46,928 nucleotides of DNA, taken from assembly GCA_029260655.1 (NCBI GenBank), contig JAJDCU010000013.1, forward strand, positions 1 through 46,928, read 5' to 3'. Positions 16,701-31,377 of this stretch are shown here, one piece after another. The notes under the pieces were generated by a model that saw only the letters and a program-made list of their open reading frames with translations, was not told where the DNA came from and ran no database searches. Position numbers and translations under genes: made by a program. The first letter of the stretch is position 1. Each line of letters opens with the position of its first letter. This DNA comes from Phycisphaeraceae bacterium. Lineage in GTDB: Bacteria > Planctomycetota > Phycisphaerae > Phycisphaerales > Phycisphaeraceae.

Positions 16701-18297
16701 TCAGTTCGATGCTCGCGTATTCGTCGATGGCGAGGCCGAAGCGGTAGACGTCCGGCAGCGGCGAGGGGATCGCTACAGCGCTGCTGTTCTCAAGCACGAT
16801 GTTGTCATAGCCCCGGCCGTCGGATGTCAGCGATAGATTGTCATACTGCTGGAACTTGATCTGGAACCCTGGTCCAAGCGTGAGGCCGGCCGACACGGCT
16901 ATGTCCGTGAGGTCAATCGTGACGTCCTGCCAAACCCCGGCAGATGTGATGGGTGAATTGAAGATCGTGTGCCAGTTCACTCCGTCGTCACTGATCGATA
17001 CACCGTCCCCATCCGCGCTGCCGGTGAACGTGGCTGGCAAAGGATGATCTTCATCGCTCCACTCGGCGTATGCGAATGAAAGCGAGACGTGGTACACGGG
17101 GTCTAAATCGACGGTCCAGATCGCCTCGTTCCGTGCATTTAATGCAATACTGTCCATCAGCATGGCGTACGACCCGTCATCGGCACCGAAACTGTTAGTA
17201 AACTGGATGCGCCCGTTGCCCGTGCTAGACGAGGACCAACCCGCAGGCAGTGCGCCGGCCTCGAAGGACTCGGACAAGGTCGAGCCTTCAATCGGAACCC
17301 CCGCTAAGGTATGCGGGTCATAGGGGGTTGTTGAACCTCGAAGCACAACTGCATCAGCGCTAAAACCCCGGTTGACAAAGAACGGGTCGAGGTTCTGCCC
17401 CACGAGCGTATCGTTGGTCGGCCCGCCGATCATCTCATGCTCAACGGCCTGGTTAAGCCGTGCGTTGAACGTAACATCCCCGATGCCATCAGTCGAAGCG
17501 AGGCTGAATGAGTAATCACCGGTCAGCAGCGCCTTGTAAGGTTCGTACAAAGTTGCGCTACCGTTGGTGTGAGGCACCGCGTCGAAAATCCGCCGGCCTA
17601 TGGGGTCGACGATTGCCAAATCAACCGAGAGCCCCGCGGTGGTGATAGTCTCAAGTTGCAGAGTCTGGCCGGCCTCAAGGAATACCGAGTACCCCGCGGC
17701 CTCACCGACCGCCGACAGCGTGGCCTGCCCGGTACCTTCGTAAGCGATCAGGCCCGGCGAAGCGACAGGCGTTAAGGCAAGCGGCGTGGTTGGTATCGCA
17801 TAAATAAGCGTAACGTGCATCGACTCCTGGGCCTGGGCAAGATCGACGACCGTGCCCGAGGCGGTGAAGTCAAGGTGCAAGTTGCCGTCGGCCGCCAGCG
17901 TTGCCAGGGTGGCGTCATCAAAAAAAGTAGACTCCGACTGCGGCCCGTATGGCTGCGTCGGGCCATCAAAAAGTAATAAGGAGGCTAAACCCTCGGCGTC
18001 CAGCAAGACGTTCTGATCAGGTTCTTCCAGGTCCCCGAAACCTGTGAGAAAGAGTTGTCCGTTTGTGGCGTCCGGGTCGATCGGGAAATCAAATGACACA
18101 ACATTGGGCGAATAGAGCGTATCAATATCGACCTGGTACTGAAACACATAAGCGTCGGCGCTAAGTAATATCCTGGGCTCAAGCGACTCCAGCCCCGGGA
18201 TAGAAGCAGCCGCTTGCTTTGATTTCTTTATTGGTGCTCGGGATACGCCGCCGGATAAAGAATCCGGTCCCCGTCCCTCTGCTCGCTGTCCCGGCAT
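10702..18297 (-). CDS. Giant secreted LEPR-motif protein with Ig-like domains and dockerin repeats
   Basis: A 2531-residue protein. Near residues 35-45 it carries LESLEPRILLSAD, an N-terminal signature common in very large planctomycete surface proteins. Then follow several pre-peptidase C-terminal-like beta domains (for example VGYFQVPVTAGDALRIRT and DIDTYTFYANAGDNLALWT), two Ig-like domains beginning DTTPPNIIESSINHGD (near residue 822) and SIAPRVISSSMQDGD (near 1432), a PQQ/beta-propeller-like stretch near 1950-2170, and four dockerin-type calcium repeats near 2280-2400 of the form GDVTGDGFVGIEDLNLVLGNWN with small variations. The last 110 residues are Ser/Arg/Gln rich without a membrane anchor. 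It is probably exported and cell-surface or matrix associated; the role (adhesion, polymer binding) is inferred. It is flanked by a gene remnant downstream, so its C-terminus could have been altered by rearrangement. Confidence 0.8.
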   Translation of the reverse strand: MPGQRAEGRGPDSLSGGVSRAPIKKSKQAAASIPGLESLEPRILLSADAYVFQYQVDIDTLYSPNVVSFDFPIDPDATNGQLFLTGFGDLEEPDQNVLLDAEGLASLLLFDGPTQPYGPQSESTFFDDATLATLAADGNLHLDFTASGTVVDLAQAQESMHVTLIYAIPTTPLALTPVASPGLIAYEGTGQATLSAVGEAAGYSVFLEAGQTLQLETITTAGLSVDLAIVDPIGRRIFDAVPHTNGSATLYEPYKALLTGDYSFSLASTDGIGDVTFNARLNQAVEHEMIGGPTNDTLVGQNLDPFFVNRGFSADAVVLRGSTTPYDPHTLAGVPIEGSTLSESFEAGALPAGWSSSSTGNGRIQFTNSFGADDGSYAMLMDSIALNARNEAIWTVDLDPVYHVSLSFAYAEWSDEDHPLPATFTGSADGDGVSISDDGVNWHTIFNSPITSAGVWQDVTIDLTDIAVSAGLTLGPGFQIKFQQYDNLSLTSDGRGYDNIVLENSSAVAIPSPLPDVYRFGLAIDEYASIELIDPDGDPVAFTLTDDDNQLVTPGGISSSTGHAALRDFKDIDSSVLYYITVTQALGEYDLIVTRGGTLEAESNDTMPQAQPIDRTGTVVGAIKDPTDVGYFQVPVTAGDALRIRTITPGWFSGRNGLDPVVTLLDPTGAVVASDDNSAPDGSNADLSHTAAATGTYTVLLEGAGGSTGNFDLNVSGYTGDPLHAFFVSDSSFPEGRLVDFQPSFIVLTFNETVSSEPLNPSVFTINGSAATSVGVWSSIPNAYFFTTLVADYVEGNNTYNLAGGAFTNMHGDLSQPFEVTFQIDTTPPNIIESSINHGDIVVDDEVTITLEFSEPMFGFLLGTGAHSIVDNGAVETSVNYDVATQVLTATYTGLSEGVYEFTFKDFAANGQGQSFPRDLAGNVIDGEARLPDAAPSGNGVEDGDFIVSFYVDEQPTDTTPIVINPVGVDGSFTYLGQVFNTADFDGDNDRYTVGLNAGQIVSLEVDFSQGIFINDMQLQLLDPGGQVVASTDASSGYLFPPTLITTSGTYTVLVHTNDVDLGWIPSTQQTYKLKLLINRLSEQEAQGQSTNDDTASAEDLNPALVPLESGILQAVVQGQGEGVATADVYKISLAAADELSLSLAGGTDPQAIQLLGPAGELLANGGGSWKDAAGLISGFIAPSTGNYFVRIAEVSGLYTLVATQGAGFSPEPTSSFTEIDLGSSIATVGAIGTSSSDIDTYTFYANAGDNLALWTTTPGSTLPNPLNTLDTFLELKGPDGFLLIESGSGGNGLNALLSHTATETGEYTVRVLSQNNTRGGYILHTAGRSAGASPFDVVVTTITDGRVLTSEPTQLTVHLSLPVRLDTLDAADLMVNGVPAVAVTATSATSLLFDLPTGLGEGTYDITIAGGALLSLAGTAIQPYAQQNFIDSIAPRVISSSMQDGDTLVPGGVILTIVFDEELKTSSLNEFDVDLFGGGSNGQDILFDVFEYDPATSTLTLGFQVEQEGDYGLTLFSNTSAFRDLAGNRLDGETPVWPIPTNVSGNGVAGGNFNLNFKVDNVAPVPIFTPTQIAPLGSLAMQSLNNIGFITDEFDTDTFTVNLQTGQSMTVVLTTQYGGLNPTLTGPAGLIAEPAPGEPIVLRYTHAGPDDIIELVVDADNMTEYDLDIYLNTELESQLAQVTDPAGTAHDLTSLFIGGYAPGIDVANILGTGQPITTITRLNRLHSQLNTTFNFVNMTTPTGDGTLTITAKGDLNDPDEFITISGESVFSADVFQADGGENTFVTTELTIPQADLQSMAANGTISFTVTPSAMVGNFGSSEVTLSLAYPGMPAPPVDAYAIDLGENQTVSVIVNDIDQGTGLFTVELVDAVTGSIVAAGVTDGGFDGMIQALTAPAAGRYHIRVHTPGTEDYSLTVLRGAAFDIELNDAPGNTLTSLDGSDAVQGYLRNLGGERLFATGIFERNNQVFELDPSTLEVINSFFVGSPDDFTISVTGLTFDGDNLYVSTNSLLGLIAVDPDTGTIRWTSPMADGGLVSVRGAVTYHGQGVNLDFNSLTGNLELAFFDIPTGEVIRRVATEPLNVDGTPIAGAATRGSIFVGEFGQISEVDAETGQILNSFPASTSFFGSMAFVAGRLYVSDARFRTTVVYDPDTGQVIQSLQFSQFQPQFSIETIGGDGVMPIQDVDLYTLTLQAGERVTLSTNTPFDDGLGVPLNSLNPAVRVFDPNGVGVAFNDNGSGDGKNALLTFTATAGGVYTVEVTAPSGTGEYLLEIDRAALLLGDVTGDGFVGIEDLNLVLGNWNQTVAIGDLAQGDASGDGFIGIEDLNAVLGNWNATLAPPVVVGDVTGDGFVGIEDLNLVLSNWNTDGSADTRSDPTGDGFVGIEDLNLVLGNWNVGTPPTSGEVAVALQQSASGEPVEVSAAVVQVRSDTRSANIPTASTVTFTADGLRGPTQARRSAPQPESALDQVASDRRSSSSLSHSTQAALAAWDPRQSQADRSGLEQSYTPWSLRSDTPTSPLGLWDDTEQFR
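11110..11460 (-). repeat. Four tandem dockerin-coding repeats
   Basis: Four near-identical units lie about 90-120 bases apart, each encoding a calcium-loop D-x-T/S-GDGF-(V/I)-GIEDLN-x-VL-x-NWN. The strong DNA identity points to recent amplification inside the gene. Confidence 0.8.
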
Positions 18298-18569: not shown

Positions 18570-19436
18570 CTAGGGCACAGACCGCTGGGCCGGTACAACG
18601 ATAGCAAGCCGCCCGTGAGACCCAGCCGATACCGCCGAAACACTACCGGCTGTTGCAACGGTGTCACCTACTCTAACCCGCAATAGATAACCCGAGCCCT
18701 GGAACTCGCAGCATTGGACGACCGCGTCACCTGTCGGGTCGGGGGTGAAGGTAAGCTGCTCGGGGCGGGTGATCTGGTTATTGAAAACGCAGGCGGGGCC
18801 GGTGGCTTGTGCGGCGGCGAGGTTGACTGGGTGATGGTAGATGTGCTCGGCCGGGCCGTACTGAGTGATGTGGCCGTTGATCAGGATGGCGCAGTTGTCG
18901 GCGAGGCGCATGGCTTCGCCGGCGTGGTGGGTCGCGAGCAGGACGCCTGCGTTTGAGTCGGCGAGAGCAGCGCGGAGCAGGTCGAACAGGTCGGCGCGCG
19001 AAGGGCCGTCAAGGTGGGCCATGGGCTCGTCCAGCAGCAGCCACACCGGGTCGATGGCCAGCGCACGGGCGATGCTGAGCCGTTGACGTTCGCCGCCGGA
19101 CATCGCTCCGGGTCGTCGGCGACGCAGGTCAGTCAGCTTCATCGCCGCAAGCGCCTGCTCGGCGCGGTCACGGTCGGCGCCGACGATCTTCAGATGTTGC
19201 TCGACTGTCAGGTGGTCCCAAAGTCCTGGCTGTTGAAAGACCATCCCGAGTTTGCCGGCTGCGCGTGCGACCCGCCCATGACTTGGCGGCCACAGCCCGG
19301 CCAGCACCCAAAGCAGTGTCGTTTTGCCCGCACCGCTTGGGCCCAATAATGCGCAGATTTTTCCACGCCGAAGCGACAGGCTAACGTCGTGTAAGACGTC
19401 GCCGTAGTACACTGATTCACAGGTCAACTCGCTCAC
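18570..19436 (-). CDS. ABC transporter ATP-binding protein, ferric-iron (FbpC) type
   Basis: A 288-residue ATPase: Walker A GPSGAGKT at residues 32-39, signature MSGGERQRLSIARAL, Walker B WLLLDEPMAHLD and switch histidine in LLATHHAGE. A C-terminal domain of about 90 residues follows, as in FbpC/PotA-like importers. I start it at the GTG at 19436, which overlaps the permease stop by four bases (GTGA); the much longer open frame upstream lies inside the permease gene in another frame and is not real. It is the last gene of the nine-gene operon and should power the permease and binding lipoprotein encoded upstream. Confidence 0.85.
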   Translation of the reverse strand: MSELTCESVYYGDVLHDVSLSLRRGKICALLGPSGAGKTTLLWVLAGLWPPSHGRVARAAGKLGMVFQQPGLWDHLTVEQHLKIVGADRDRAEQALAAMKLTDLRRRRPGAMSGGERQRLSIARALAIDPVWLLLDEPMAHLDGPSRADLFDLLRAALADSNAGVLLATHHAGEAMRLADNCAILINGHITQYGPAEHIYHHPVNLAAAQATGPACVFNNQITRPEQLTFTPDPTGDAVVQCCEFQGSGYLLRVRVGDTVATAGSVSAVSAGSHGRLAIVVPAQRSVP

Positions 19437-20881
19437 GCGCGTCTCCGTCTTGCCAGAAAGCCCAGCAGTACGATCCACGGGGTCAGCAACAGCAACACAG
19501 CCACCGCCGCTGCGCTGACCTGGGTATCCGGTGCGGTGTGGATCAGGGTATATAGCCTGACACCGACGGTCGATGTGCCCGCCGGGGCAAGCAGAAGCGA
19601 CGCCTCGAGTTCGGTAGCGATTAGCAGGCCACATAGGAGTAGGGCGGCGGTAAGCTCGACGCGCCGCGTCGAGCAGTAGATGCGCCGTATTCTTGTCCAG
19701 ACAGGCACGTTGAACAGCTTCGCCGCGGTGTCGGGCAACTGCGGGCGGCGCAGTCCTGCGATGAACAGCACGAGAACGACCACCGGCACGAACCTCGCCG
19801 CGTACGTCGCCATGAGGGGTCCGTCTCCGTCGCGCAGCAATCGAATCGGCCAACGTGCGGACAGGTCTATTAAACCCATCGCCAACATCGATGGGGGGGC
19901 GGCCAGGTTGACGAGGATCAACGGCGTCCATGACCAGCGTCCCCGCCTCCAGTCGCGTAGCCACAACTCGGCCAGCAGCCAGCCGATCACAACGCAGGCC
20001 GGGGCGCATGCCGCTGTGATCAGCCCGGTGTGGACGACTTCGTGGCGCATCTCGCGGAAGGCTTCTACCAGTGATGTCGGTGAACCTATCTGCCAGATGA
20101 TCGCTGTGATCGGGACACCCACGGATAACAACATGACCAGTACCGCTGGCCAGAACGACTTGGGCGAGGGTTCGTTCGAGTCGACCGTAAGCCATGGACG
20201 CACCACGCAGACGACGCCGCCAATCGCCAGGACGGCGGGCAGCAGCATGGGGGTCGCCAATGCTGCTGCACCCGGGAGGTCTTGCAGGGCGTTGTATTGG
20301 ATCAGTACCTGGGTGCCGTAGGTATGCACGAGAAACATCGACGGCATGATGTGGTCCGCGCTGACGAGTATAAACGTCGCCGCCATCGCGGCGGCCGCCG
20401 GTCCGAGCGCTGGCTTGATTCCGAACCACCACCAGGTATGGCGGACCTTAAAGACCTTCGCGGCGGGACCGGGGCCAACGCGTTGGGTAGCGAAGATCAG
20501 CGCTGCGATCCCGGCGTAGCGCAGCCCCACAGCAGCTGACGCGATCGGCCAGTCGAATACCGTTATCCAATCGCCCAACGGTCCGTTGCGTCCCAGTGCG
20601 ATGATCCATGACGAGCCCAGAAGCGATGACGGGATCGCCAAAGGCACACACGCCACAATCGCCCAGCCGATGCCCGATCGACCGACCAGGTAGCCCCCTA
20701 GTATTGCGACTACGGACGCCAACAGACCGAAATACGCCGTGTCTAACAGGATCCGCCAGCCGCGCGGCGAAAGCCACCAGTCCTGGTATCCCGATGATGC
20801 CGCCACCGCCGCACCCAACGGCAAAAGCAGCGCGAGTGTCAGCAGGATCCCGAGAACGCTAAGTGACCGATCAGTGGTCAA
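19433..20881 (-). CDS. ABC transporter permease, two-domain FbpB/ThiP type
   Basis: A 482-residue hydrophobic protein with about 11-12 membrane segments in two halves, as in fused iron or thiamine permeases. Half one runs from SLSVLGILLTLALLLPLG to about residue 240 and half two from FWPAVLVMLLSVGVPIT to the end. The stretch DTAAKLFNVPVWTRIRRIYC is the second-half EAA-like loop that contacts the ATPase. It overlaps the binding-protein gene by 11 bases and the ATPase gene by four. The cargo is probably ferric iron by family resemblance, but thiamine or another small solute is possible. Confidence 0.8.
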   Translation of the reverse strand: MTTDRSLSVLGILLTLALLLPLGAAVAASSGYQDWWLSPRGWRILLDTAYFGLLASVVAILGGYLVGRSGIGWAIVACVPLAIPSSLLGSSWIIALGRNGPLGDWITVFDWPIASAAVGLRYAGIAALIFATQRVGPGPAAKVFKVRHTWWWFGIKPALGPAAAAMAATFILVSADHIMPSMFLVHTYGTQVLIQYNALQDLPGAAALATPMLLPAVLAIGGVVCVVRPWLTVDSNEPSPKSFWPAVLVMLLSVGVPITAIIWQIGSPTSLVEAFREMRHEVVHTGLITAACAPACVVIGWLLAELWLRDWRRGRWSWTPLILVNLAAPPSMLAMGLIDLSARWPIRLLRDGDGPLMATYAARFVPVVVLVLFIAGLRRPQLPDTAAKLFNVPVWTRIRRIYCSTRRVELTAALLLCGLLIATELEASLLLAPAGTSTVGVRLYTLIHTAPDTQVSAAAVAVLLLLTPWIVLLGFLARRRRA

Positions 20882-21905
20882 AGCCCACCTGCCTGAGAAG
20901 GTCTACCGTCGACTGCCTGTCGCCTGCCGCGGTTTCAACGTCGAACGGCATCGTGTTGCGGTTAATCATACCGTCCCAGGGTGTCGGCATATCGGACAGA
21001 TCATCGCCGAGCGGGATCTGGGCGCTTCGTGCTTCCGCGAGCGCCTGTTCGACTTCGGCTGACAACAGGTAATCGATCAGTTGTCTCGCCTGTTTGGGAT
21101 GTGGACAGCCGGCAATCATCGCCACGGTGTTCGGGATCAACACCGCGCCTTGCTCGGCGTCGGGCACCACGACCGCGACCGGCTTGCCGTCAAGCATCGC
21201 GCCGTGGGCATCGTCCGTATCGGTCAAGCCGAAGGCCCTTTCGCCCGACGCCACCAGATCACGCACCGAGCCGTTACCCGGCGCAATCGCGGTTCCGTTG
21301 GCTTTGACTGACACCATCCAATCGATCAGACGCTTTTCCCCCCACGCCTGTCTCAATATGCTCATGTGAGTGAAGGTCGTGCCGAAGAACGGCAGGGCGA
21401 TCGCGGAACGTCCACGCCACTTGGGATCGGCCATATCGGCAAGCGAGGTTGGGACTTCATCTGCGGCGATCAATTCCGTGTTATAGATGAACACCCTGGC
21501 CCGCGCCGCGAAGCCGGTCCATCGGTGCTGTGGGTCTTTGAACGCCGGACTAAAACGTGACGCCGACGGGCTTTCGTAAGGCTCTAACAATCCCAGCCCC
21601 GCGAGGTGTTGAGTCTGAACGACCTCGTTGTTCCAAAGCACGTCGCACTGGGGGTCGTCACGGCGGGCGATGATCTGGTTGATCAGGCCGGTGGTCTTGG
21701 CGGCCTCGGCGTCGTACTTGGCGAGGACGCGGATACCGGTTTGCTGTTCGAATCGCTTAAGGATCGGCTCGGAGTAGACCCGATCCAAGGCCGTGAACAC
21801 CACGACCTCGCCGGCCGGTGCGGCGCGTCTTTCACAACCGGCCTGAGCGCACAGCAACGAGATCAGGCACAACAGATAGATAGAAAAACTAACGGTAGTC
21901 CGCAT
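20871..21905 (-). CDS. Iron-type extracellular solute-binding lipoprotein (FbpA family)
   Basis: A 344-residue periplasmic binding protein of the type that feeds FbpBC-like importers. The start at 21905 gives a clean lipoprotein signal peptide: SFSIYLLCLISLLCAQAGC, with the lipobox cysteine at residue 25. The mature protein starts with VVVFTALDRVYSEPILKRFE, the usual opening of this class, and keeps KYDAEAAKTTGLINQI and the late SAEVEQALAEARSAQIPL block. It overlaps the end of the VWA gene by 17 bases. Because a TonB-like and ExbBD system sits in the same operon, iron or iron-complex uptake across both membranes is an attractive reading, but the ligand residues cannot be verified from sequence alone. 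Confidence 0.8.
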   Translation of the reverse strand: MRTTVSFSIYLLCLISLLCAQAGCERRAAPAGEVVVFTALDRVYSEPILKRFEQQTGIRVLAKYDAEAAKTTGLINQIIARRDDPQCDVLWNNEVVQTQHLAGLGLLEPYESPSASRFSPAFKDPQHRWTGFAARARVFIYNTELIAADEVPTSLADMADPKWRGRSAIALPFFGTTFTHMSILRQAWGEKRLIDWMVSVKANGTAIAPGNGSVRDLVASGERAFGLTDTDDAHGAMLDGKPVAVVVPDAEQGAVLIPNTVAMIAGCPHPKQARQLIDYLLSAEVEQALAEARSAQIPLGDDLSDMPTPWDGMINRNTMPFDVETAAGDRQSTVDLLRQVGFDH

Positions 21906-22998
21906 AGCGCTCCACGATGGTCTGGACGTCTCGCTCAAACCGCTTACCGAAGACAGATACAATCAGGTTCTCCCAGAACGCCTTCTCGCTTGCCAGAAGG
22001 GAAGCGGTCCCGCCACCGGCCTCGGCGATCTCCTGGAAATCTCCCAACACCACTTTGCGATCGGTTCCGACATCGATGACGTTGACCGTGCCGGCGAAAC
22101 GTTTCCTAAATCCACGGGCTTCTGCGATGGCCTCGTTGCGGCCGCCGGGGTGGACCGGGGAATCACCAATCAGGACGATGATGCTCGTGGCCGATCGCTT
22201 CCAGCCCATTTTCCTTTCGGTCGCGATCTTCAGGGCTTCGTGGATTGGCTCGGGGATGTCGCCGCCACCGCTGGCGGTGATTCGGTCGATGAATTCTCGG
22301 ACGGACTCGAACTCATGGGTCAGGGCCAGGGCTTTGGCGGCCGCGATGCCGTACTCGTCCCCGTAGTCCTTGTACGCCACCACACCGAACCGGACATTTC
22401 TTGGCGGCAGACCGTCTTTGGATAGAACACCCGTGATGACCCCGATCACATCATGCACACGCTCCTTGGCCTGGCCGATGATCCCCGACATGCTGTTGGT
22501 CGCATCAATGACAAACACGACATCCAACCCACGACCACGGATCCCGCCGACCATCTGCTGGAAGCCTTCGCTTGATCCGTCGATCAGCGGGTTGTCACCA
22601 CGACCGGTGTGCTCGGCGCTGAGTTGTTCAGTGAGTTCGACCAACAGCGCAAGCGCCGGGTCGGACATCGCCGGGTCGGTCGGCAGGACGCTCTGATCGG
22701 GGGCGGGGGTGGACCCCAGCGAGGCGTCAACCGAAGGCGCGGGCATCGGTGCGGTAGACGGGCTTGCGGCCGAATCGCTGGTTGCTTCCACACGCGGGGC
22801 GGATCCGCCGGACGAGCTGGTCGATGGATCGTCCGGCCGACCGACGGGTTCGAAACTAACCACGGCCTCAATCGGTGGCGGCTGCGCGACCGCCAACACC
22901 AGGCTCGCCAGTAGCAGCACGATTAGCGCGTGGACCACCGCCGAGATACCCCACGCTTTTGCACGTTGCCCCCAACTATCGGTTACATGTTCGTTCAC
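21889..22998 (-). CDS. VWA-domain protein with TonB-like N-terminal anchor
   Basis: A 369-residue protein. Near residues 15-38 there is one membrane helix (AWGISAVVHALIVLLLASLV) that contains the S-x-x-x-H pair (S19, H23), as in the TonB helix that contacts ExbB-ExbD. A Pro/Ser-rich linker of about 100 residues follows, as in TonB, but in place of the TonB C-terminal domain there is a von Willebrand factor A domain from about residue 155, with the metal-site variant D165-x-T167-x-S169 (VIDATNSMS) and FGVVAYKDYGDE. It sits directly after two exbD genes. I infer that the proton motor pulls on this VWA protein. Its partner in the periplasm is unknown. Confidence 0.75.
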   Translation of the reverse strand: MNEHVTDSWGQRAKAWGISAVVHALIVLLLASLVLAVAQPPPIEAVVSFEPVGRPDDPSTSSSGGSAPRVEATSDSAASPSTAPMPAPSVDASLGSTPAPDQSVLPTDPAMSDPALALLVELTEQLSAEHTGRGDNPLIDGSSEGFQQMVGGIRGRGLDVVFVIDATNSMSGIIGQAKERVHDVIGVITGVLSKDGLPPRNVRFGVVAYKDYGDEYGIAAAKALALTHEFESVREFIDRITASGGGDIPEPIHEALKIATERKMGWKRSATSIIVLIGDSPVHPGGRNEAIAEARGFRKRFAGTVNVIDVGTDRKVVLGDFQEIAEAGGGTASLLASEKAFWENLIVSVFGKRFERDVQTIVERYADYR

Positions 22999-23444
22999 GG
23001 CATGGGTTCCCTGGGGCTTGGGCTCAAGGATAGCCGTTTCATCGGACTGGCCAGCACCGCGTCCATGCCGTTGGCGACCTGTTGCACGCTCAGGTCGGCG
23101 CCGGCCCCGATCACCACCGGGACACGCGGCAGATCGATCTGTGTCAGCAACGCAGTGAGGTCATCAAACCCGTCATCGGGCAGCGCGGCGTCACCGACCC
23201 GGATAGCCACAGCCCCTTGATCTGTCGCATTCAACCACACACGCACCGCCGCCGGCAGGTCCTCGGCCGAGGCCCCCGCCGACTGGGTTTGATCCTGATA
23301 GCCCAGCGGCAAATCGCGCTCGCCCCCGTGAAACTGCACGCTCATCACGAAAAACGCAAGCAGGATGAATACGATGTCGACCATCGCCGCGACCTGGAAC
23401 AGCTCGTCGGACTCTTCTTCGGGTTCGCCCAGAAAATCCATCAT
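22995..23444 (-). CDS. ExbD/TolR-family biopolymer transport protein (second copy)
   Basis: A 149-residue protein with a short cytoplasmic N-terminus, one membrane helix (VAAMVDIVFILLAFFVMSVQ, with the key aspartate in MVDIVFILLAFF) and a periplasmic ExbD/TolR domain. The aspartate is the proton-carrying residue of the family. Its start overlaps the end of the first exbD gene by four bases and its end overlaps the VWA gene by four. Confidence 0.85.
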   Translation of the reverse strand: MMDFLGEPEEESDELFQVAAMVDIVFILLAFFVMSVQFHGGERDLPLGYQDQTQSAGASAEDLPAAVRVWLNATDQGAVAIRVGDAALPDDGFDDLTALLTQIDLPRVPVVIGAGADLSVQQVANGMDAVLASPMKRLSLSPSPREPMP

Positions 23445-23884
23445 GGTCGGCCCTCCGTTGCCCGTATGGTTACGCCGCGCAGGCCTGCGTCACGGCAGGC
23501 GCCCATGGCCGCGTCGAGCAGGCCGTAACTCTGCCGACCGTCGGCGCGGATCACGACGTTCAGCCCCGCCCCCGACGCCTCGGCGCGGCTGCGCTCGGAC
23601 CGCAGCAACGCCTCGAGCCCGTCGAGATCGACCGGTGCGCCGTTGAGGTTGATCGAGCCGGCCGCGTCGATGTTCACGATCAACTCCGCCGGGATCACAT
23701 CTGACGTCTCGTTGTTTACCATCGTCGGCAGTTTGATCTGGTCGTCCGTTCGGCTTTGCATCGATTGCATCACCAACAAGTAGAAACAGATCAGCAGCAA
23801 CACAATGTCGACAAGCGGCGCCATCCCGATGTGCGGGTGGGCGGCGTCGGCGTCTTCGTGGTTGAAGTCCAGCCGGGCACTCAC
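23441..23884 (-). CDS. ExbD/TolR-family biopolymer transport protein (first copy)
   Basis: A 147-residue protein with the membrane helix HIGMAPLVDIVLLLICFYLL and its proton-binding aspartate, and a periplasmic domain of ExbD type. I start it at the GTG at 23884, overlapping the ExbB stop (GTGA); the longer frame to 24055 is antisense-free but lies inside exbB and lacks family similarity there. Two unlike ExbD subunits in a row suggest a mixed dimer in the motor. Confidence 0.85.
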   Translation of the reverse strand: MSARLDFNHEDADAAHPHIGMAPLVDIVLLLICFYLLVMQSMQSRTDDQIKLPTMVNNETSDVIPAELIVNIDAAGSINLNGAPVDLDGLEALLRSERSRAEASGAGLNVVIRADGRQSYGLLDAAMGACRDAGLRGVTIRATEGRP

Positions 23885-24627
23885 TTGGGCGCCTCCTGTT
23901 TCTGGTTGGCTTGTTGGCGCGTCTCGATGACCACGGTCATGAGCCTGAGCATCTTCTCGCCGACCGCGGCTGTTTTGTGGCCGATGCGGGTGATGCGGAT
24001 GCGGAAGAAGACGTAGAAGAACATCAACGGCACCGCGACAACCAGGCCCATGCACGTGGTCACCAGGGCCTGGCTGATGCCCAGCGCCAGCTCGTCCGGC
24101 CGGGCCGCGCCCTGGGCCTCGCCCAGCAGGCGAAACGATGCGATCATGCCCGTCACCGTGCCCAGCAGCCCGAGCATCGGCGCGACCGACGCGATCAGGC
24201 CGATGTAGCCGTTGCGCTCTCGCATCCTGGTGACCTCCATCACGCCGGCATGCTCCATGCCCTCACGCACCGCGTCGAGCCCGAGCTTGCCGTCCGCCAA
24301 CCCGCCGGCGATGACGCGCCCGAGCATGCTCTCGTTTGTCTTACAAAGCGCCAGCACCTCTTCGAACTTCCCCTTGGCGGTCAGGTCGTGGACCTGTTCA
24401 ACGAGGTTCGGCGGGGCCAGGTCCTTCTCCTTGAGCCGCATGAAGGCGTCGACCACCAGGGCCAGCCCACACAGACTCAGCAGCATGATGGCGTACCCGA
24501 CCCAGCCACCGGCCTGTACAAGGTCGAGCAGTGATCGGCTTGCCTCAGGCTCGGCGTCCTGGGCCCAAGCCGTTGTCGCAAACACAAAAACCACAACAGC
24601 GGCGCCAAGAATATCGGCTCGTTTCAT
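23881..24627 (-). CDS. MotA/TolQ/ExbB-family proton channel protein
   Basis: A 248-residue ExbB/TolQ homologue. It begins with a cleavable-looking signal sequence (GAAVVVFVFATTAWAQ) seen in many planctomycete ExbB proteins, followed by three membrane helices: YAIMLLSLCGLALVV, GLIASVAPMLGLLGTVTGMI (the conserved pore motif) and ALVTTCMGLVVAVPLMFFYVFF. With the two ExbD proteins it should form a proton-driven motor in the inner membrane. The gene overlaps the TPR gene upstream by four bases. Confidence 0.88.
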   Translation of the reverse strand: MKRADILGAAVVVFVFATTAWAQDAEPEASRSLLDLVQAGGWVGYAIMLLSLCGLALVVDAFMRLKEKDLAPPNLVEQVHDLTAKGKFEEVLALCKTNESMLGRVIAGGLADGKLGLDAVREGMEHAGVMEVTRMRERNGYIGLIASVAPMLGLLGTVTGMIASFRLLGEAQGAARPDELALGISQALVTTCMGLVVAVPLMFFYVFFRIRITRIGHKTAAVGEKMLRLMTVVIETRQQANQKQEAPK

Positions 24628-26537
24628 TCTTCAAACTCCTTCTTCAGAACGTCCAGCCGTGTCCGCAACTGGGGTCGCCCGGTAACTGGATACAACGCTT
24701 CGGCCACACGCAACACCTCTGCGGCGGCCGGTCCATCATCCATCGTAAGCTGCGCCGTCGCCAGCGCGAGCGTCGCTTCCCACCAGAAGTCACTACCGGC
24801 CCGCGAAGCTCGGCGAGCATCACGTATTTCCGTCAGCGCCTCGTCCTCCTGGCTTAGCGCCAACCGGCACAGCCCCCGCTGAAGCGCCCCCTGGGCTGTG
24901 TCGTCGCCCACCAGCGCATCCAGCCCCTCTTGCGGACGATCCATCGCTCGCAATGCCTCGGCCAGGACCCGCTTCGCCTCGGCCCAATCCAGCGGCCCGA
25001 GCACTTTCACCGCATCGGCACGGGCATCGACACGCAACATCAATCGAGCCGCCGCAAGGGCGGTGGGCTTATCATCAGGCGCAGCGGTGATCGCGGCGCT
25101 GGCCAGAGATAACACACGTTGCTGGGCGTTACCCCCGATGCCGTCCGCATAACGGTCCGCCAGCGCTTCACCGACCAGCAGCAGTGACTGGGGCCGCTGG
25201 GTATCGGGGCTTCGCAACATCTCCTCCGACGCACGGTCCACCATGCCCAGTTCGATCCACAACCTGACCCGCTGCTGTTGTGCCGGCTTGGCAACAAGCG
25301 GCTGATTCATCAGCTCGTCCCAATGCTCGGTGAGCACCGCCATGGCGTCACGCGGATCGGTTTCGATCTGGGCTAGCAACAATACGGCCGATGCGCGGAC
25401 CAGTGGATCACTTGTCTCTGTGATAACGGCGTATAATTCGGCAATCCGCTCGGCCGGCTCGATGGTGTCCCGCGCCGTCGCAGCGCGGGCGTATCTCAGG
25501 TAGGGATCGGACGACACGAGATCTTCATGCGTAGTCAATATCTCAAGGGATCCATAAGCCCCTGACAGATGCACCCAGCGACGAAGCGCAGCGCGCCTCA
25601 GCGCATCGTCGGCCTCAGACTCGATAAGGCGGCGATAAGCCTCGAGGGCCGACGATGTGTGTCCGGGGTCTTCTACAATCAAGGATTCCAGGCAGGAAGC
25701 GTAGGCGAGCATCACCTCAGGCCCGGCACCGGATTCAATGGCCCTGCTCCACTGCTTGGCCGCCTCCGCTTTCCGCCCCGCACCCTGCAACAGCGCCGCA
25801 TACAGCCTGGCCGCTTGGGTCGGTGCATCTTCATCCAACACCGCCAGCGCGGCTTCATTTCGGCCAACCTCCGCCAGGATCTGCGCCCATGCGAAGCGTT
25901 CGTCTTCGCTCAAGGCGTCCAGACCGGCGATCAATTCCAGCCGTTGAAATTTCGGCACCGAGGCCACGACCGTTTCACTGCGTACCAGTTCAAGGGCTTT
26001 ATCACGGTCCCCGAGTTCTGCATACGCCCTGGCGAGGAACCCGTGTGCCGGCACCCCCAATGCGTGGGCGTCCTTCATGGCGCGTTCCGGATCGATCAAC
26101 AGCCGGGCCCCGAGCGACTCTAGTTGTGCCAGGCGTTTCATCTTCGAGTCGCCGCGAGCTTCGGTCAGCGCAGCGAGTACCACAAGAGCCTGGGCCGGGT
26201 CGCCGTTTTGCATATGTACGCGGGCCTCGCCGATGTAGCCGAGCACACCGGTGGCCAGGTCCATATAGTCGACCCGCATAGAGCGGAAACGCTCGAGTGC
26301 TTTTTCATCATAGCCCCGGTCCGGCGAAGCGGCGGCGGCACGGCGGTAGAGCTCACCCGCCAGGAAAGCATCCATGCAGCGCTGCGGGCGTGTCTGCGCG
26401 TTCAGTTCGGCGAGCCCCGCTTCAAGGGCTTGGACTACCTGTGCCGGCTCGGCACCGCCTGACAGACGCAGCCGTTCGAGGTCCGACGCCGGGCTTGCCA
26501 GGACCGACAACATCAGCAGGCCGACGGTGGTGATCAA
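24624..26537 (-). CDS. Secreted TPR-repeat protein
   Basis: A 637-residue, alanine-rich helical protein with an N-terminal signal peptide (TTVGLLMLSVLASPAS). It is made almost wholly of tetratricopeptide-like helix pairs, for example AHGFLARAYAELGDRDKALELV and RFAWAQILAEVGRNEAALAVL. No catalytic motif is seen. The position between the HEAT protein and ExbB in a run of four-base overlaps suggests a periplasmic scaffold for the motor complex, an inference from context. Confidence 0.75.
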   Translation of the reverse strand: MITTVGLLMLSVLASPASDLERLRLSGGAEPAQVVQALEAGLAELNAQTRPQRCMDAFLAGELYRRAAAASPDRGYDEKALERFRSMRVDYMDLATGVLGYIGEARVHMQNGDPAQALVVLAALTEARGDSKMKRLAQLESLGARLLIDPERAMKDAHALGVPAHGFLARAYAELGDRDKALELVRSETVVASVPKFQRLELIAGLDALSEDERFAWAQILAEVGRNEAALAVLDEDAPTQAARLYAALLQGAGRKAEAAKQWSRAIESGAGPEVMLAYASCLESLIVEDPGHTSSALEAYRRLIESEADDALRRAALRRWVHLSGAYGSLEILTTHEDLVSSDPYLRYARAATARDTIEPAERIAELYAVITETSDPLVRASAVLLLAQIETDPRDAMAVLTEHWDELMNQPLVAKPAQQQRVRLWIELGMVDRASEEMLRSPDTQRPQSLLLVGEALADRYADGIGGNAQQRVLSLASAAITAAPDDKPTALAAARLMLRVDARADAVKVLGPLDWAEAKRVLAEALRAMDRPQEGLDALVGDDTAQGALQRGLCRLALSQEDEALTEIRDARRASRAGSDFWWEATLALATAQLTMDDGPAAAEVLRVAEALYPVTGRPQLRTRLDVLKKEFEE

Positions 26538-28543
26538 TACCAGTCCTCCTCGAACTGCGGGATCAGGTAGCCGTAGAGGAACACATTTTCCAGCCCGCGG
26601 TACGGATCGGTCAGGCCGTTCTTCATCATGAAGTTGCTGCCGATGAGGAACACCGATAGCGGCGGCAAATCGTCCTGGTTAAACAACCTGCCGATGGCGT
26701 CGGCCATGAAGGCGCGTTCGTACTGGTTGGTGTCGTCTGCTAACAACGGCAGGACGTGCGCCGCCACACCCGGTGCCCCGCACAACGACAGCGCAACGAT
26801 CACCTCACGGTTGACATAATACGCTTCCTGGTCCCACGCCCAGACGAGATGGGGGATCGCCTCGCCGGCCCCGGTCACACCCATCGACAGAATCGCCGCC
26901 CGTCGGGCAAGCAGGTCCGTGGTCTCATCGTGGTGGGGTTTGCGCTCAAGCGCCGCACGGGCCAGCTCGATCACGTTGCGGTCACCCAGGATCGCCCGGC
27001 CTAACAACACATACCCACCCAACAGCGGGCTGGTGTCGTCGAACGCCTCGTAGCGGCCGATCATCAGTTTGAGGTTCGATGTCCTGCCGCTTATACCCAG
27101 CGCAACCGCGGCAGCGGCACGGACCTCCAACTTCTCACGCTTATCGACCAACCGATCCTTAAGCATCTTCAAGGCGCGTCCGTGGTCCGGGTGATTGGTC
27201 GCGCCCTGCTCCGTCATGTACGGCCGGGCGTAGAGGCCCAAACCAATGATCGCAAATCCGCGCAACGGTGATTCGAGGTCTTCCTGACGCTTGATCCGGC
27301 GTCCGTCCTGATCGCTCGCCACGGCCAACAGGTCGTCGAGTCCCTTGTGCGAACCGATCTGGCCGAGGCTGATGGCCGCAAAACACTTCGCCGGCGTGTT
27401 GTAATTGTTGGTCTGCTCCGTGATCAACGCTCGCAGCGCATCGATGGCCTGCTCCCGGTTAGTTGCCCCTGTCAGCGCCGTCGCCGCAGAGGCCCGCAGA
27501 CGGGCGCGGTAGATCTCCTCGATCCCGATGACCATCCTGATCCCACGGTAGCCCTCGGGCTGCTCGCCCAACGGTGTCGGGGCCGGGTTCAGATCGAAGA
27601 TCCGGCGGTGGGCTCGGACCCACTTGCGGTGCTGACCAACGGTGACAGGCCCGTACTTCTCACGTTTGACCTCATCAAGCGTACGCCAGAGCGGTAAGTC
27701 TTGAAACTCATCTCCCTGAGACACAATCCGCGCCAGCATAAGTTCGCCGGCCTCATCTATATTTGAGCCCAACGCCAGGAGCGAATCGGACACAAGCCAG
27801 GGGCTGCCCGAGGTCGCCATCAATGACATGGTCTCTCTTGCGTGCCCATCCCCAGGATGTTGCGTAAGCGCCCACCACGCTGCGTTACGCATCACCGGGC
27901 CGTCCCGATCAAGGACCTTGTGCAACCCAACACGCATCGGCATCGTCTGCTCGCGCACCAGGCCGGTACTGATCAGCGCGGAAGCACGCAGCCAAGGCGA
28001 TGGCGGCGAATACCCAAATAGAAATGATCCGCTGTCTTTGTCGTCGATCAGACCTATCGCCAACAACGCATTGGACCTCACGGACTCGCTGGGGTCTTTC
28101 TGTGCAAGCTTAATCAGCGCCTCTATAGCGCCAGAATCCGCCGACGCACGCATGCGGCCAAGCGACAGAGCCGCGGCGGATCTGGGTTCCTCGTTGGGAT
28201 CACTTAGCACCTCGATGAGTGCTTTCTCCGCACGAGAGCGTAACGAAAGAAAACCTGCCTGATCCAGATCCTGGTGAGGCCGGCCTTGCCCAATCGGCCG
28301 CAGATACAGGCTTCGGTTCGCCTCCCACCAGTGGACCCATGACCACCGCAGCTCGGTCACGCGCGGCATCTGTTTAAGAACTATTTTGGGCTTGGGGGGA
28401 GGAGGCGGGGCCGTAGGCGCCGGGTCGCCGTGTGCCCAGACGATAGACGCCAACACAAGGATGATGGTCGCCCCAGTGTATGTCGTTGAACCCGCGGAGA
28501 TTTTGTGGCAATTAGCTTGCAACGAGGTGTATGATACAACCAT
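26534..28543 (-). CDS. HEAT-repeat protein
   Basis: A 669-residue protein, first gene of the operon. Near residues 20-40 there is a hydrophobic signal or anchor (GATIILVLASIVWAHGD), then a proline stretch (APTAPPPPPKPK) and many HEAT/PBS-lyase-like repeats such as EEPRSAAALSLGRM, ESVRSNALLAIGLIDD, REQAIDALRALITEQ and LEVRAAAAVALGISG. These form a curved protein-binding solenoid. I chose the ATG at 28543; it overlaps the start codon of the divergent cytochrome gene, so the true start may be a later TTG or GTG, leaving room for promoters. The longer frame to 28903 is antisense to the cytochrome gene. Confidence 0.7.
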   Translation of the reverse strand: MVVSYTSLQANCHKISAGSTTYTGATIILVLASIVWAHGDPAPTAPPPPPKPKIVLKQMPRVTELRWSWVHWWEANRSLYLRPIGQGRPHQDLDQAGFLSLRSRAEKALIEVLSDPNEEPRSAAALSLGRMRASADSGAIEALIKLAQKDPSESVRSNALLAIGLIDDKDSGSFLFGYSPPSPWLRASALISTGLVREQTMPMRVGLHKVLDRDGPVMRNAAWWALTQHPGDGHARETMSLMATSGSPWLVSDSLLALGSNIDEAGELMLARIVSQGDEFQDLPLWRTLDEVKREKYGPVTVGQHRKWVRAHRRIFDLNPAPTPLGEQPEGYRGIRMVIGIEEIYRARLRASAATALTGATNREQAIDALRALITEQTNNYNTPAKCFAAISLGQIGSHKGLDDLLAVASDQDGRRIKRQEDLESPLRGFAIIGLGLYARPYMTEQGATNHPDHGRALKMLKDRLVDKREKLEVRAAAAVALGISGRTSNLKLMIGRYEAFDDTSPLLGGYVLLGRAILGDRNVIELARAALERKPHHDETTDLLARRAAILSMGVTGAGEAIPHLVWAWDQEAYYVNREVIVALSLCGAPGVAAHVLPLLADDTNQYERAFMADAIGRLFNQDDLPPLSVFLIGSNFMMKNGLTDPYRGLENVFLYGYLIPQFEEDWY

Positions 28544-29837
28544 GTCCCACAAAAATAAAGCATTGATCAAAAAAAAATCGGTGGTGGGACCACGAGCGAT
28601 AGGGCCGATATTGGGTGCTGTGATTGTACTAGTGGCTTGGCTGATCTGGCTGATCTGGCTGCCTGGCCAGCTAACGCGGACAACCGAGGCCGATCTACAG
28701 GATTCGGACCCGTTACAGCGTGCCGAGGCGTGCAGACAGGCCGGTGAAGCCGACTTATTGGCCCGCACCAGTGACGCCGACTGGCGCGTGCGTGCCGCGG
28801 CCTTCGGGGCGCTGGACAAAATCGACCCTGTCGACCCCATGCCTCTGCGTGACACACCGATTGACCAGCGCGAGGCGTTGGCTTTAAGTTGGATAGATCG
28901 CAATGCGCCTTCTGTATCGGGCGATCTCTGCGAGGTCTACGCCCATTCGGAGCATCTGCGCTTCGGCCCGGTCCTCGTAGGACGCTGTCTGACATGCCAC
29001 GCCGGGCCCGTACCTGATCCCGACCACGCCGACACCCGCTGCGCCGAGTGTCACACACAAACCCATGCGCAATGGTCCGGCACCGCGCATGCAAACAGCC
29101 TTTCGCACTTGATCCTCATGACCGTCGACCCTGTTACGCGTCAGCCCGGGACCTTCGACTTCGCAGATCGCAAAGGCCTTTCCTGCGTCGCCTGCCACTC
29201 GCCTCAGAGCGAGCGTGATACCCCGCATCAGCTAACCGGTTGCCTCACGCCATTCACGACGATCGCCTGCGCCCAATGCCACGGCCGGACGGCATCACAG
29301 TGGGATCAATGGGCAATGCGACCGCGCTACCGCCAGGCGACCTGGCCCCCCGGTTCGATTGAGCAGGTGGACGAAGACATGCCGATGGCTTGCATCGACT
29401 GTCACATGCCCGACGGCCGACACCTGTGGTCGGCACGACGCGATATGGATCTCTTGCGTAGCGGCATTGCCATGACGTTTACTCAGGACGACGAAGATGG
29501 GCCGACCTTGTCACTGCGAAACTTCGCTGGCCACGCATACCCCAGCGGCGGCATCCGCCGAGCCTTGCGGCTGTATGTCCAACTTGATGACGGCTCCGAG
29601 CAACTGCTCGCCACCCTTGCCGATAGACTGGACGATCCGTCGGGAAACCCCAACGCTTACCCAGCCCTACAGCCCGGCGAGATACGTGTGTTTCCCCTTC
29701 CCCGCACGACGGGCCTGGCACGGGCCCGGCTTGTTTACGTCCGCAACCGGTTCGACACGGACAGCTACACGGCCGAGGTCCATACCCTCGACCCGCAGCC
29801 GCCTCGCGGTGCAAATAGATCGTTATCAGAAAAATGA
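28542..29837 (+). CDS. Membrane-anchored pentaheme cytochrome c, 3' end truncated by IS remnant
   Basis: A 431-residue protein with a basic N-terminus and one membrane helix (ILGAVIVLVAWLIWLIWLPG, near residues 23-42), a HEAT-like segment (residues 55-95), and five CxxCH heme-binding motifs at residues 149-153, 167-171, 215-219, 243-247 and 284-288. It should be a periplasmic electron-transfer protein tethered to the inner membrane. A beta-rich C-terminal region follows. The last codons (after DPQPPRGA) are encoded by an insertion-sequence end that begins at about 29811, so the native C-terminus is lost. It diverges from the ExbBD/HEAT operon. Confidence 0.75.
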   Translation: MSHKNKALIKKKSVVGPRAIGPILGAVIVLVAWLIWLIWLPGQLTRTTEADLQDSDPLQRAEACRQAGEADLLARTSDADWRVRAAAFGALDKIDPVDPMPLRDTPIDQREALALSWIDRNAPSVSGDLCEVYAHSEHLRFGPVLVGRCLTCHAGPVPDPDHADTRCAECHTQTHAQWSGTAHANSLSHLILMTVDPVTRQPGTFDFADRKGLSCVACHSPQSERDTPHQLTGCLTPFTTIACAQCHGRTASQWDQWAMRPRYRQATWPPGSIEQVDEDMPMACIDCHMPDGRHLWSARRDMDLLRSGIAMTFTQDDEDGPTLSLRNFAGHAYPSGGIRRALRLYVQLDDGSEQLLATLADRLDDPSGNPNAYPALQPGEIRVFPLPRTTGLARARLVYVRNRFDTDSYTAEVHTLDPQPPRGANRSLSEK

Positions 29838-30644: not shown

Positions 30645-30717
30645 CCGCCCTCCCGGGGCTCGAACCCGGCACCTCCTGATTCAGAGTCAGGTGTGCAACC
30701 CGTTGCACCTGAGGGCA
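30645..30717 (-). tRNA. tRNA-Gln (CTG), distal end of the array
   Basis: Cloverleaf with anticodon loop CTCTGAA. U1 (paired with G72) and G73 fit glutamine identity. Position 8 is A in place of the nearly universal U. CCA is not encoded. Confidence 0.88.
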
Positions 30718-30726
30718 TCCGTAAAG

Positions 30727-30808
30727 TGGGGTGGGACGGAGTCGAACCGCCAATGTCTCGCGACGGCTGGATTACAACCAGCGGGGCCTGCCATTGCCCA
30801 ACCACCCC
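30727..30808 (-). tRNA. tRNA-Tyr (GTA)
   Basis: 82 bases, anticodon loop TTGTAAT, perfect GGGGTGG/CCACCCC acceptor stem, A73 and the long variable arm expected for bacterial tRNA-Tyr. Confidence 0.9.
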
Positions 30809-30820
30809 GGGTGTGAAGGC

Positions 30821-30901
30821 GTTAGCCATTAGCCTTTAGCTGTTAGCACAGAGATAAAGTTAAGGCGCATCCCTCTGGCTAATAGCTAACAGCTAAAGGC
30901 T
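30821..30901. repeat. Hairpin of TTAGCC-type heptamer repeats, copy 1
   Basis: The left arm contains GTTAGCC, ATTAGCC, TTTAGCT heptamers; 30831-30847 is exactly complementary to 30885-30901 (17 bp). It lies between tRNA-Tyr and tRNA-Ser genes. Confidence 0.8.
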
Positions 30902-30909
30902 CCAACAAG

Positions 30910-30995
30910 CGGAAGGCGGAGGACTCGAACCCCAGGCCGTAAAGCCCCACCCGTTTTCGAGACGGGGGCCGCCCCATTGGCGAACTTCACCTTCC
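30910..30995 (-). tRNA. tRNA-Ser (CGA)
   Basis: 86 bases, anticodon loop CTCGAAA, long variable arm, G73. The D arm is atypical: the acceptor is followed by a longer linker and a CGCC/GGCG stem with a very small loop. Acceptor GGAAGGT/GCCTTCC has a T7-G66 wobble. Confidence 0.82.
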
Positions 30996-31008
30996 TTTCA
31001 CTAACCAA

Positions 31009-31079
31009 TACCCCGCCCGGGAATCGAACCCGGTCCTCCGGCTTGAGGGGCCGGCGTCACACCAATCGACCAGCGGGGC
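31009..31079 (-). tRNA. tRNA-Glu (CTC) with C33
   Basis: 71 bases. The anticodon stem CCGGC/GCCGG closes loop CCCTCAA, giving anticodon CTC with C at position 33 where U is nearly invariant. G1-T72 wobble, A73. Compare the canonical tRNA-Glu(CTC) at 43265, which has U33. Confidence 0.82.
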
Positions 31080-31087
31080 GTTCTTGT

Positions 31088-31177
31088 AGCCGTTAGCCAT
31101 TAGCCTTTAGCCATTAGCTTGTGCATACGTACCATTCATCCTTCTTGCTAACGGCTAACGGCTAACGGCTAATGGCT
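31088..31177. repeat. Hairpin of TTAGCC-type heptamer repeats, copy 2
   Basis: Left arm: about four TTAGCC(A/G/T) heptamers at 31088-31118. Right arm: four GCTAACG/GCTAATG heptamers at 31147-31177. The arms are complementary with a few mismatches and make a long fold-back between tRNA-Glu and tRNA-Ser. Confidence 0.8.
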
Positions 31178-31186
31178 CACACAAAG

Positions 31187-31270
31187 CGGAAGGCGGTGGG
31201 CACGATCCACAGACCCATCAGGCCCCACCCGGTTAGCAACCGGAGCCCGCACCTAGCGGATTCACCTTCC
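31187..31270 (-). tRNA. tRNA-Ser (GCT) with inverted T54/A58
   Basis: 84 bases, anticodon loop TTGCTAA, long variable arm, G73. The D arm has a CCGC/GCGG stem with a five-base loop. The T loop is ATCGTGC, so the usual T54-A58 pair is replaced by A54 and T58. Confidence 0.8.
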
Positions 31271-31276
31271 ATCTAA

Positions 31277-31347: not shown

Positions 31348-31377
31348 AAACAAGAGCGAAAGGATGTGAAATATGAA

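What the first reader, a model, noticed from the sequence alone, without database searches (positions are those of the whole stretch)
18570..28543. Nine-gene operon joining a TonB-like VWA protein and ExbBD motor to an iron-type ABC importer
HEAT, TPR, ExbB, ExbD, ExbD, VWA, binding lipoprotein, permease and ATPase genes overlap by 4-17 bases throughout. The VWA protein has a TonB-like helix with S-x-x-x-H and a Pro-rich linker, but a VWA domain replaces the TonB C-terminus. This suggests a proton-driven system that pulls on a VWA partner to pass iron or another solute to the ABC importer. No outer-membrane receptor is present.
Basis: partly seen in the sequence, partly recalled or inferred. 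Interest (0 to 1): 0.6.

Follow-up and report, generated by a model that had tools for sequence, protein, structure and literature searches.

The report
Motor-driven importer cluster with pentaheme cytochrome
A block of genes in planctomycete bacteria joins a proton-driven pulling motor, an ATP-driven nutrient importer and a haem-rich electron-carrying protein, and distant relatives keep the block together, which gives a first clue to what a recently described, otherwise unexplained family of bacterial force-transmitting proteins may do.

Summary
In detail: nine minus-strand genes at 28543-18570, overlapping by 4, 4, 4, 4, 4, 17, 11 and 4 bases. The motor-ABC linkage is not a chance neighbourhood: VWA, binding protein and permease are adjacent in 11 distinct loci (6 family codes plus one uncoded MAG), 10 of them with the motor in the same order. 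The VWA tree nests five ABC-free genomes inside the linked clade, so the linkage looks ancestral and lost once. The TonB-like VWA motor subunit is already published, function unknown (PMC12204202); that text holds no 'ABC transporter', 'permease', 'HEAT repeat' or 'cytochrome'. The iron assignment is weak: the binding protein's profile matches AfuA (sugar phosphate) slightly better than ferric proteins, and a paired-Tyr motif is absent. No TonB C-terminus or TonB-dependent receptor plug was found in the genome. Best reading: a proton-driven VWA transducer serving a periplasmic redox and ABC uptake system of unknown, probably anionic, substrate.

The parts
28542..29834 (+). Divergent gene: N-terminal hydrophobic (TM-like) stretch, HEAT-like repeat, pentaheme cytochrome c (5 CxxCH; Cytochrome_C554-like)
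   Evidence: 5 CxxCH invariant in 9 of 9 aligned loci; PF13435 E 3.7e-7; beside HEAT in 9 of 11 linked loci; annotated start overlaps the HEAT start and is uncertain
26534..28543 (-). HEAT-repeat protein with N-terminal signal-like hydrophobic stretch; start uncertain
   Evidence: HEAT_2 E 3.9e-30
24624..26537 (-). TPR protein with signal-like N-terminus (TTG start)
   Evidence: weak TPR hits below Pfam cut-offs; orthologues at this place in 10 of 11 linked loci
23881..24627 (-). ExbB/TolQ/MotA-like proton-channel subunit
   Evidence: PF01618 E 1.1e-27
23441..23884 (-). ExbD/TolR-like subunit 1, TM aspartate (APLVDIV) present
   Evidence: PF02472 E 2.3e-22; VDIV/IDIV Asp in 15 of 15 aligned rows
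22995..23444 (-). ExbD/TolR-like subunit 2, TM aspartate (AMVDIVF) present
   Evidence: PF02472 E 1.4e-7; MVD Asp in 15 of 15 aligned rows
21889..22998 (-). TonB-like VWA force transducer: TM helix with S19-x-x-x-H23, Pro-rich low-confidence linker (about 42-134), VWA domain about 158-350 with D165-x-T-x-S169
20871..21905 (-). Solute-binding lipoprotein (AfuA/FbpA/PhnS superfamily); lipobox-like ...QAGC
19433..20881 (-). Fused two-fold ABC permease (FbpB/ThiP type)
   Evidence: No Pfam hit; profile of relatives matches 9j4r E 1.4e-13
18570..19436 (-). ABC ATPase with Walker A, signature, Walker B and His switch

Best explanation
The locus encodes one envelope-spanning uptake unit. Shown: a conserved ten-gene arrangement (divergent cytochrome plus nine-gene operon). 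Inferred: ExbB with ExbD1/ExbD2 converts proton flow into motion. It grips the VWA protein through the S-x-x-x-H helix, as in ExbBD-TonB. The VWA domain, through its metal site, engages a periplasmic partner in the HEAT/TPR/cytochrome/binding-protein set and pulls, remodels or releases it. The released or redox-processed small solute is bound by the lipoprotein and imported by the permease and ATPase. The VWA protein is the hub between two gene modules: {TPR, ExbB, ExbD, ExbD} and {cytochrome, HEAT, binding protein, permease, ATPase}. The substrate is not iron-specific on present evidence. A phosphate-bearing or other anionic organic is favoured over bare Fe(III). Which partner is pulled is unknown.
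For: Linkage of VWA, binding protein and permease in 11 distinct loci from 6 family codes (f1, f6, f11, f15, f16, f25) plus one uncoded MAG, although VWA averages 42% and HEAT 38% identity between genera. Ten of the 11 keep the motor in the same order. The linked binding proteins form one clade (98/96) apart from 23 other class homologues, of which 15 had their neighbourhood read. The VWA tree places the ABC-free clade inside the linked one (96/91), so the linkage looks ancestral. In the three ABC-free genomes searched whole (G035, G241, G020) neither a HEAT orthologue nor the cytochrome was found, while motor and VWA with SxxxH stay. In G149 an ExbB orthologue and most of TPR are missing genome-wide, both ExbD are missing from the locus, and the VWA protein has also lost the SxxxH helix, while cytochrome, HEAT, VWA domain and ABC remain. 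Cytochrome in 9 of 397 class genomes, 8 of them among the 12 VWA-bearing ones. SxxxH in a hydrophobic stretch in 31 of 35 more distant VWA loci, read by eye.
Against: No experiment. Synteny shows co-inheritance, not contact. Outside the Phycisphaerae no VWA locus examined is directly linked to this ABC set. G149, G177 and G207 show apparent internal deletions in fragmented assemblies: the motor-less case may be decay or assembly error. The cytochrome profile was built from linked loci, so its co-occurrence is partly circular; with only the three hits not used to build it, 2 of 3 lie in VWA-bearing genomes, P about 6e-4. Permease and ATPase were not searched genome-wide in the ABC-free genomes. 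High binding-protein conservation is not special: unlinked operons show the same order.
Confidence: 0.45

Rival explanations
1. Ferric-iron version: the cytochrome reduces or mobilises iron, the motor-VWA device helps release it, and an FbpABC-like importer takes it up.
For: Permease profile matches an iron ABC permease. Many binding-protein matches are ferric proteins. A pentaheme cytochrome could reduce metal.
Against: In printed alignments to YfuA and other ferric proteins the Tyr-Tyr region falls on a gap or on T-D-T-D-D (that these Tyr are the iron ligands is recalled). Profile ranks the 4r72-4r75 group (AfuA) first. NCBIfam ranks 2-aminoethylphosphonate binders first, far below their cut-offs. 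No TonB-dependent receptor plug in the genome.
Confidence: 0.15
2. The motor-VWA part does something else (adhesion, gliding or envelope upkeep; PMC12204202 speculates on gliding) and the ABC and cytochrome genes are a co-inherited but functionally separate passenger module.
For: ABC-free motor clusters persist in five Phycisphaerae genomes and motor-VWA loci occur widely without this ABC set. The G149 locus keeps the ABC without the motor.
Against: Tight overlaps in the window and fixed order across families; linkage ancestral; cytochrome, HEAT and the adjacent ABC missing together in the ABC-free genomes tested.
Confidence: 0.3
3. The cluster is an electron-transfer or redox-sensing device; the binding protein acts as a sensor of a periplasmic compound and the motor adjusts an envelope structure.
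For: Cytochrome co-occurrence; CxxCH-rich ORFs also lie near unlinked or distant members of this importer family in L138 and L203.
Against: A complete permease and an ATPase with intact motifs argue for transport. Only 2 of the 16 unlinked or distant binding-protein regions scanned (L128-L141, L198, L203) have ORFs with two or more CxxCH.
Confidence: 0.1

Closest known systems
vWA force-transducer family (Williams-Jones et al. 2025, PMC12204202; abstract, outline and passages found by term, chiefly section 8)
   Same: TM helix with conserved His, disordered Pro-rich linker, vWA domain; downstream of TPR, TolQ-like and two TolR-like genes in the PVC group
   Different: Here the operon continues into binding protein-permease-ATPase and begins with a HEAT gene beside a divergent pentaheme cytochrome; the paper's main text has 0 occurrences of 'ABC transporter', 'permease', 'HEAT repeat' and 'cytochrome'
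TonB-ExbB-ExbD
   Same: Proton-channel pair and S-x-x-x-H helix
   Different: No TonB C-terminal domain; no TonB_C or receptor Plug hit in the genome; two different ExbD
AfuABC (hexose phosphate) / FbpABC (ferric) importers
   Same: Binding protein, fused permease and ATPase; profile matches
   Different: AfuA Asp206 is matched by Asp and the Gly-Thr phosphate loop is kept, but His205 is Asp and Glu229 is Val in the alignment (mapped by hand); FbpA Tyr pair absent
Cytochrome c554 / c552 / MccSep / ExtKL multiheme cytochromes
   Same: CxxCH region and C-terminal domain matches
   Different: Membrane-anchored by prediction, with HEAT-like repeats, pentaheme; NCBIfam scores far below the equivalog cut-offs

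Membership tests
vWA force transducer (PMC12204202) | N-terminal TM helix with motor-binding Ser/His motif | tested here: met
   S19/H23 in 15 of 16 Phycisphaerae rows, exception G149
vWA force transducer (PMC12204202) | Disordered linker then vWA fold | tested here: met
   pLDDT below 50 at 42-116 and 121-134, mostly above 85 over the VWA domain; Foldseek hits to integrin/ANTXR VWA domains
vWA force transducer (PMC12204202) | Next to TPR, TolQ-like and two TolR-like genes | tested here: met
vWA force transducer (PMC12204202) | Docks on the motor edge and transduces force | not testable with these tools
TonB system | TonB C-terminal domain | tested here: not met
   VWA instead; no PF03544 hit in genome
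TonB system | TonB-dependent receptor | tested here: not met
   No PF07715 hit in the 95%-complete genome
FbpABC ferric importer | Paired Tyr iron ligands | tested here: not met
   Gap or T-D-T-D-D at that place; ligand role recalled
FbpABC/AfuABC superfamily | Binding protein, two-fold permease, ATPase | tested here: met
AfuA sugar-phosphate binder | His205, Asp206, Glu229 triad (PMC4546632) | tested here: not met
   Asp, Asp, Val by profile alignment, mapped by hand
Cytochrome c554 family | PF13435 above cut-off | tested here: met
   31.4 bits vs 20.8 for the window protein, 40.7 for L127; L047 relative 20.3, just below

The most novel reading that the evidence does not exclude
A new uptake principle: a proton-driven motor pulls a VWA protein that loads or releases an ABC importer's binding lipoprotein across the wide planctomycete periplasm, in partnership with a pentaheme cytochrome, so that one locus couples proton force, redox chemistry and ATP for import without any TonB-dependent receptor.
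Probability: 0.2. Interest if true: 0.85.

Novelty: new variant of a known kind. Interest (0 to 1): 0.62.

Why it matters
The vWA force transducers were described in 2025 with unknown function. A conserved, apparently ancestral tie to an ABC importer, a HEAT protein and a pentaheme cytochrome gives a concrete, testable role (solute uptake with redox handling). Natural losses of either half point to the VWA protein as the link between motor and importer.

Tried and rejected
Binding-protein conservation as a sign of motor contact: linked clusters give 56-58% mean identity for the binding protein against 38-40% (permease) and 43-45% (ATPase). Unlinked operons show the same order (45/28/36%, 5 operons; binding protein 60, permease 45% in 7 others), so it is a trait of this importer family. 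Rejected.

Distance correlations between genes (0.68-0.96) are expected from shared descent and are not used as proof of contact.

VWA residues fixed in all 11 linked rows but changed in all 5 ABC-free rows (A166, I174, Y216, G265; A290 in 10 of 11; V37 and G132 in the 10 rows other than G149): the ABC-free rows are one clade, so this is only a lead.

Second ABC neighbourhood in family f52 (L198, L203): binding protein-permease-ATPase lie about 3.6-5 kb from a VWA protein, with unrelated genes between. Too loose to count.

Binding-protein structure model: mean pLDDT 54, not used. Flanking genes of the linked clusters for substrate hints: none consistent by eye apart from the cytochrome.

Partial loci dropped from the linked count: L056 (VWA C-terminus, then a permease piece, no binding protein between; contig starts in VWA; probably genome G207) and G177 (cytochrome, HEAT, split TPR, then an ORF joining an ExbB-like start to a permease end; not among the VWA matches). 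G207 also has a partial cytochrome on another contig.

Duplicates between collections were merged by equal contig length. That searches drew the same 397 genomes is assumed from equal numbers and handles.
Full report
CHECK OF THE OBSERVATION. Six-frame ORFs and start-codon contexts confirm nine minus-strand genes from 28543 to 18570 with overlaps 4,4,4,4,4,17,11,4. Pfam assigns HEAT_2, MotA_ExbB, ExbD (twice), VWA, SBP_bac_6 and ABC_tran. TPR is sub-threshold and the permease is unassigned. A profile of eight permeases matches 9j4r, an iron ABC transporter permease, at 1.4e-13. The window is contig C13 of a 3.52-Mb, 83-contig, 95%-complete genome in which five MotA/ExbB-domain matches were found.

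IS THE LINKAGE REAL? VWA orthologues were collected by relatives search (61 genomes), a genome contigs pattern scan (47 loci), a binding-protein search of the class (298 genomes) and a VWA profile search of the class (397 genomes). The ATPase is seen in 9 of 11; in G099 and G254 the contig ends in the permease. In G079 the ATPase reads in two frames. The motor genes and TPR are present in order in 10 of 11 (not G149), and HEAT in 10 of 11 (G202's contig ends in TPR). These span family codes f1, f6, f11, f15, f16, f25 plus the uncoded MAG L048.

HISTORY. In a VWA-domain tree rooted on 15 rows from other phyla, the five ABC-free rows are one clade (100/99) nested inside the linked rows (96/91), so the linkage looks ancestral in this group and lost once. 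The linked binding proteins are one clade (98/96) against 23 other class homologues; for 15 of those 23 I read the neighbourhood (14 fetched regions plus the second copy in L127) and saw no adjacent motor. In the class search 12 of 397 genomes carry a strong VWA orthologue (E<=1e-100): 8 are ABC-linked, 3 are ABC-free and 1 (G207) is partial. The system is therefore rare and scattered.

WIDER FAMILY. The 35 more distant VWA loci (L057-L091; Gammaproteobacteria, Myxococcota, Binatota and others) show an ExbB hit in 22 and no binding-protein hit in any, though many contigs are short. An S-x-x-x-H in a hydrophobic stretch is present in 31 of 35, read by eye; exceptions are L069, L080 (cut), L090 and L091. 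In 392 phylum genomes 21 have a VWA profile match at 1e-40 or better; 18 of these lie outside the class. In the 18 regions fetched around those (several on short contigs), none is directly ABC-linked, and one (L191) shows ExbB and two ExbD nearby.

THE MISSED GENE. A scan for CxxCH found a five-haem ORF divergent from HEAT. In the window it is 28542-29834(+): a hydrophobic TM-like stretch, a HEAT-like repeat and five CxxCH. It matches Cytochrome_C554 (E 3.7e-7) and, by profile, c552 and MccSep structures. It lies beside HEAT in 9 of 11 linked loci (window, G003, G004, G041, IP29b, G104, G079, G149, G254) and also in G177. In G099 it is on another contig. G202's contig ends first, and no match was found in G202 (77% complete). 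It was not found in G035, G241 and G020 (whole genomes) nor in the stretches held of L052 and L054. In 397 class genomes the profile (E<=1e-15) finds 9 carriers, 8 of them among the 12 VWA carriers (P about 3e-13). Counting only the 3 hits not used to build the profile, 2 of 3 are in VWA carriers (P about 6e-4). Among VWA carriers, 7 of 8 ABC-linked against 0 of 3 ABC-free have it (Fisher one-sided P 0.024).

TWO NATURAL LOSSES. Of the ABC-free genomes, G035, G241 and G020 were searched whole: no HEAT orthologue (G020 no match; G035 and G241 best 2.1e-9 and 2.5e-12 over part of the repeats) and no cytochrome. For the binding protein, G035 and G241 show only 43-45% identical homologues elsewhere; G035's falls outside the linked clade. 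Permease and ATPase were not searched genome-wide there. They keep TPR, ExbB, two ExbD and VWA with SxxxH. G149 is the reverse: cytochrome, HEAT, VWA, binding protein, permease and ATPase remain. ExbB/ExbD are gone from the locus, an ExbB orthologue (best 3.6e-25, paralogue level) and most of TPR are missing genome-wide, and the VWA protein starts with a TPR-like, signal-bearing segment instead of the SxxxH helix. ExbD was not searched genome-wide. VWA is thus the member shared by both remnants. Caution: G149 is one fragmented assembly, none of 40 relatives searched has the locus, and G177 and G207 show other apparent internal deletions, so decay or misassembly is possible.

SUBSTRATE. The lipoprotein's best single-sequence structure matches are YfuA and ferric HitA. 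With a profile the 4r72-4r75 entries come first (6.8e-26), followed by ferric proteins; PMC8427247 (passages) gives 4R73 as AfuA, a hexose-phosphate binder formerly called ferric (PMC4546632, passages). NCBIfam ranks 2-aminoethylphosphonate binders first, though at 83 bits against a cut-off of 310. Invariant residues include T176-T177, H180, D229-T230-D231-D232 and W91-N-N-E94. By the alignment, mapped by hand, AfuA His205/Asp206/Glu229 correspond to Asp/Asp/Val. No Tyr pair is present at the FbpA site (ligand role recalled). I therefore favour a phosphate-bearing or other anionic organic over Fe(III), with low certainty.

MECHANISM. Shown: gene content, order, conservation and modular loss. 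From established knowledge (recalled): ExbB/ExbD are proton-driven motors and the TonB helix His is needed for motor coupling. PMC12204202 reports modelling of vWA helices at the same site (passages). Inferred: the VWA domain pulls a periplasmic partner of the HEAT/TPR/cytochrome/binding-protein set to enable uptake. With no receptor plug or TonB domain found in the genome, a classical TonB role is unlikely.

NOVELTY. The transducer family is in print, with function unknown; its main text has no 'ABC transporter', 'permease', 'HEAT repeat', 'cytochrome', 'ATPase' or 'importer' (supplements not seen). Searches for the combination, judged from listings: one search gave 5 papers (that one and four on other subjects by title), 34 that paper alone, 69 none, 70 that paper alone, 71 six (TonB, iron, nickel and other subjects), 94 one (Woeseiaceae metagenomics), 97 none. 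The library lacks most subscription papers and preprints. I rate it a new variant of a known kind.

Noticed in passing
window 30645-37998: 35 tRNA genes (ARAGORN) in a minus-strand array with labels for all 20 amino acids, with an SPFH/slipin-like gene (31501-32631, my reading) and an RtcB ligase gene (33985-35217, E 8e-66) inside it. It resembles the 26-gene tRNA operon of Anabaena in PMC10272220, whose text also mentions RtcB and slipin (search listing only).
   Followed up: partly
window 10702-18297 (-): 2531-aa secreted-looking protein downstream of the ATPase with an LEPR..LLSA-like N-terminus, five PPC stretches and repeated GDxTGDGFVGIEDLNxVLxNWN dockerin-like units; similar stretches occur downstream in L031/L046 but no hit in L030/L045.
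   Followed up: partly
L125 (G149) 7585-9138: VWA protein fused to a TPR-like N-terminus with motor genes missing: a possible natural motor-less variant.
   Followed up: yes
L218 (G177) 4792-5970: ORF that joins an ExbB-like start to the end of the permease: an apparent large internal deletion of the same locus.
   Followed up: partly
L198, L203 (family f52): VWA protein with SxxxH helix (FHA-like N-terminus seen in L203) and a related binding protein-permease-ATPase set 3.6-5 kb away; sigma and anti-sigma factor-like genes lie between in L203, and a CxxCH-rich ORF follows there (gene names by eye).
   Followed up: partly
L057-L064: Gammaproteobacterial ExbB-ExbD-VWA clusters with a large conserved downstream protein (weakly TPR-like in L061) and, in L057, L058, L059, L061 and L064, a conserved about 470-aa Tat-signal-like protein (family F19).
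   Followed up: no
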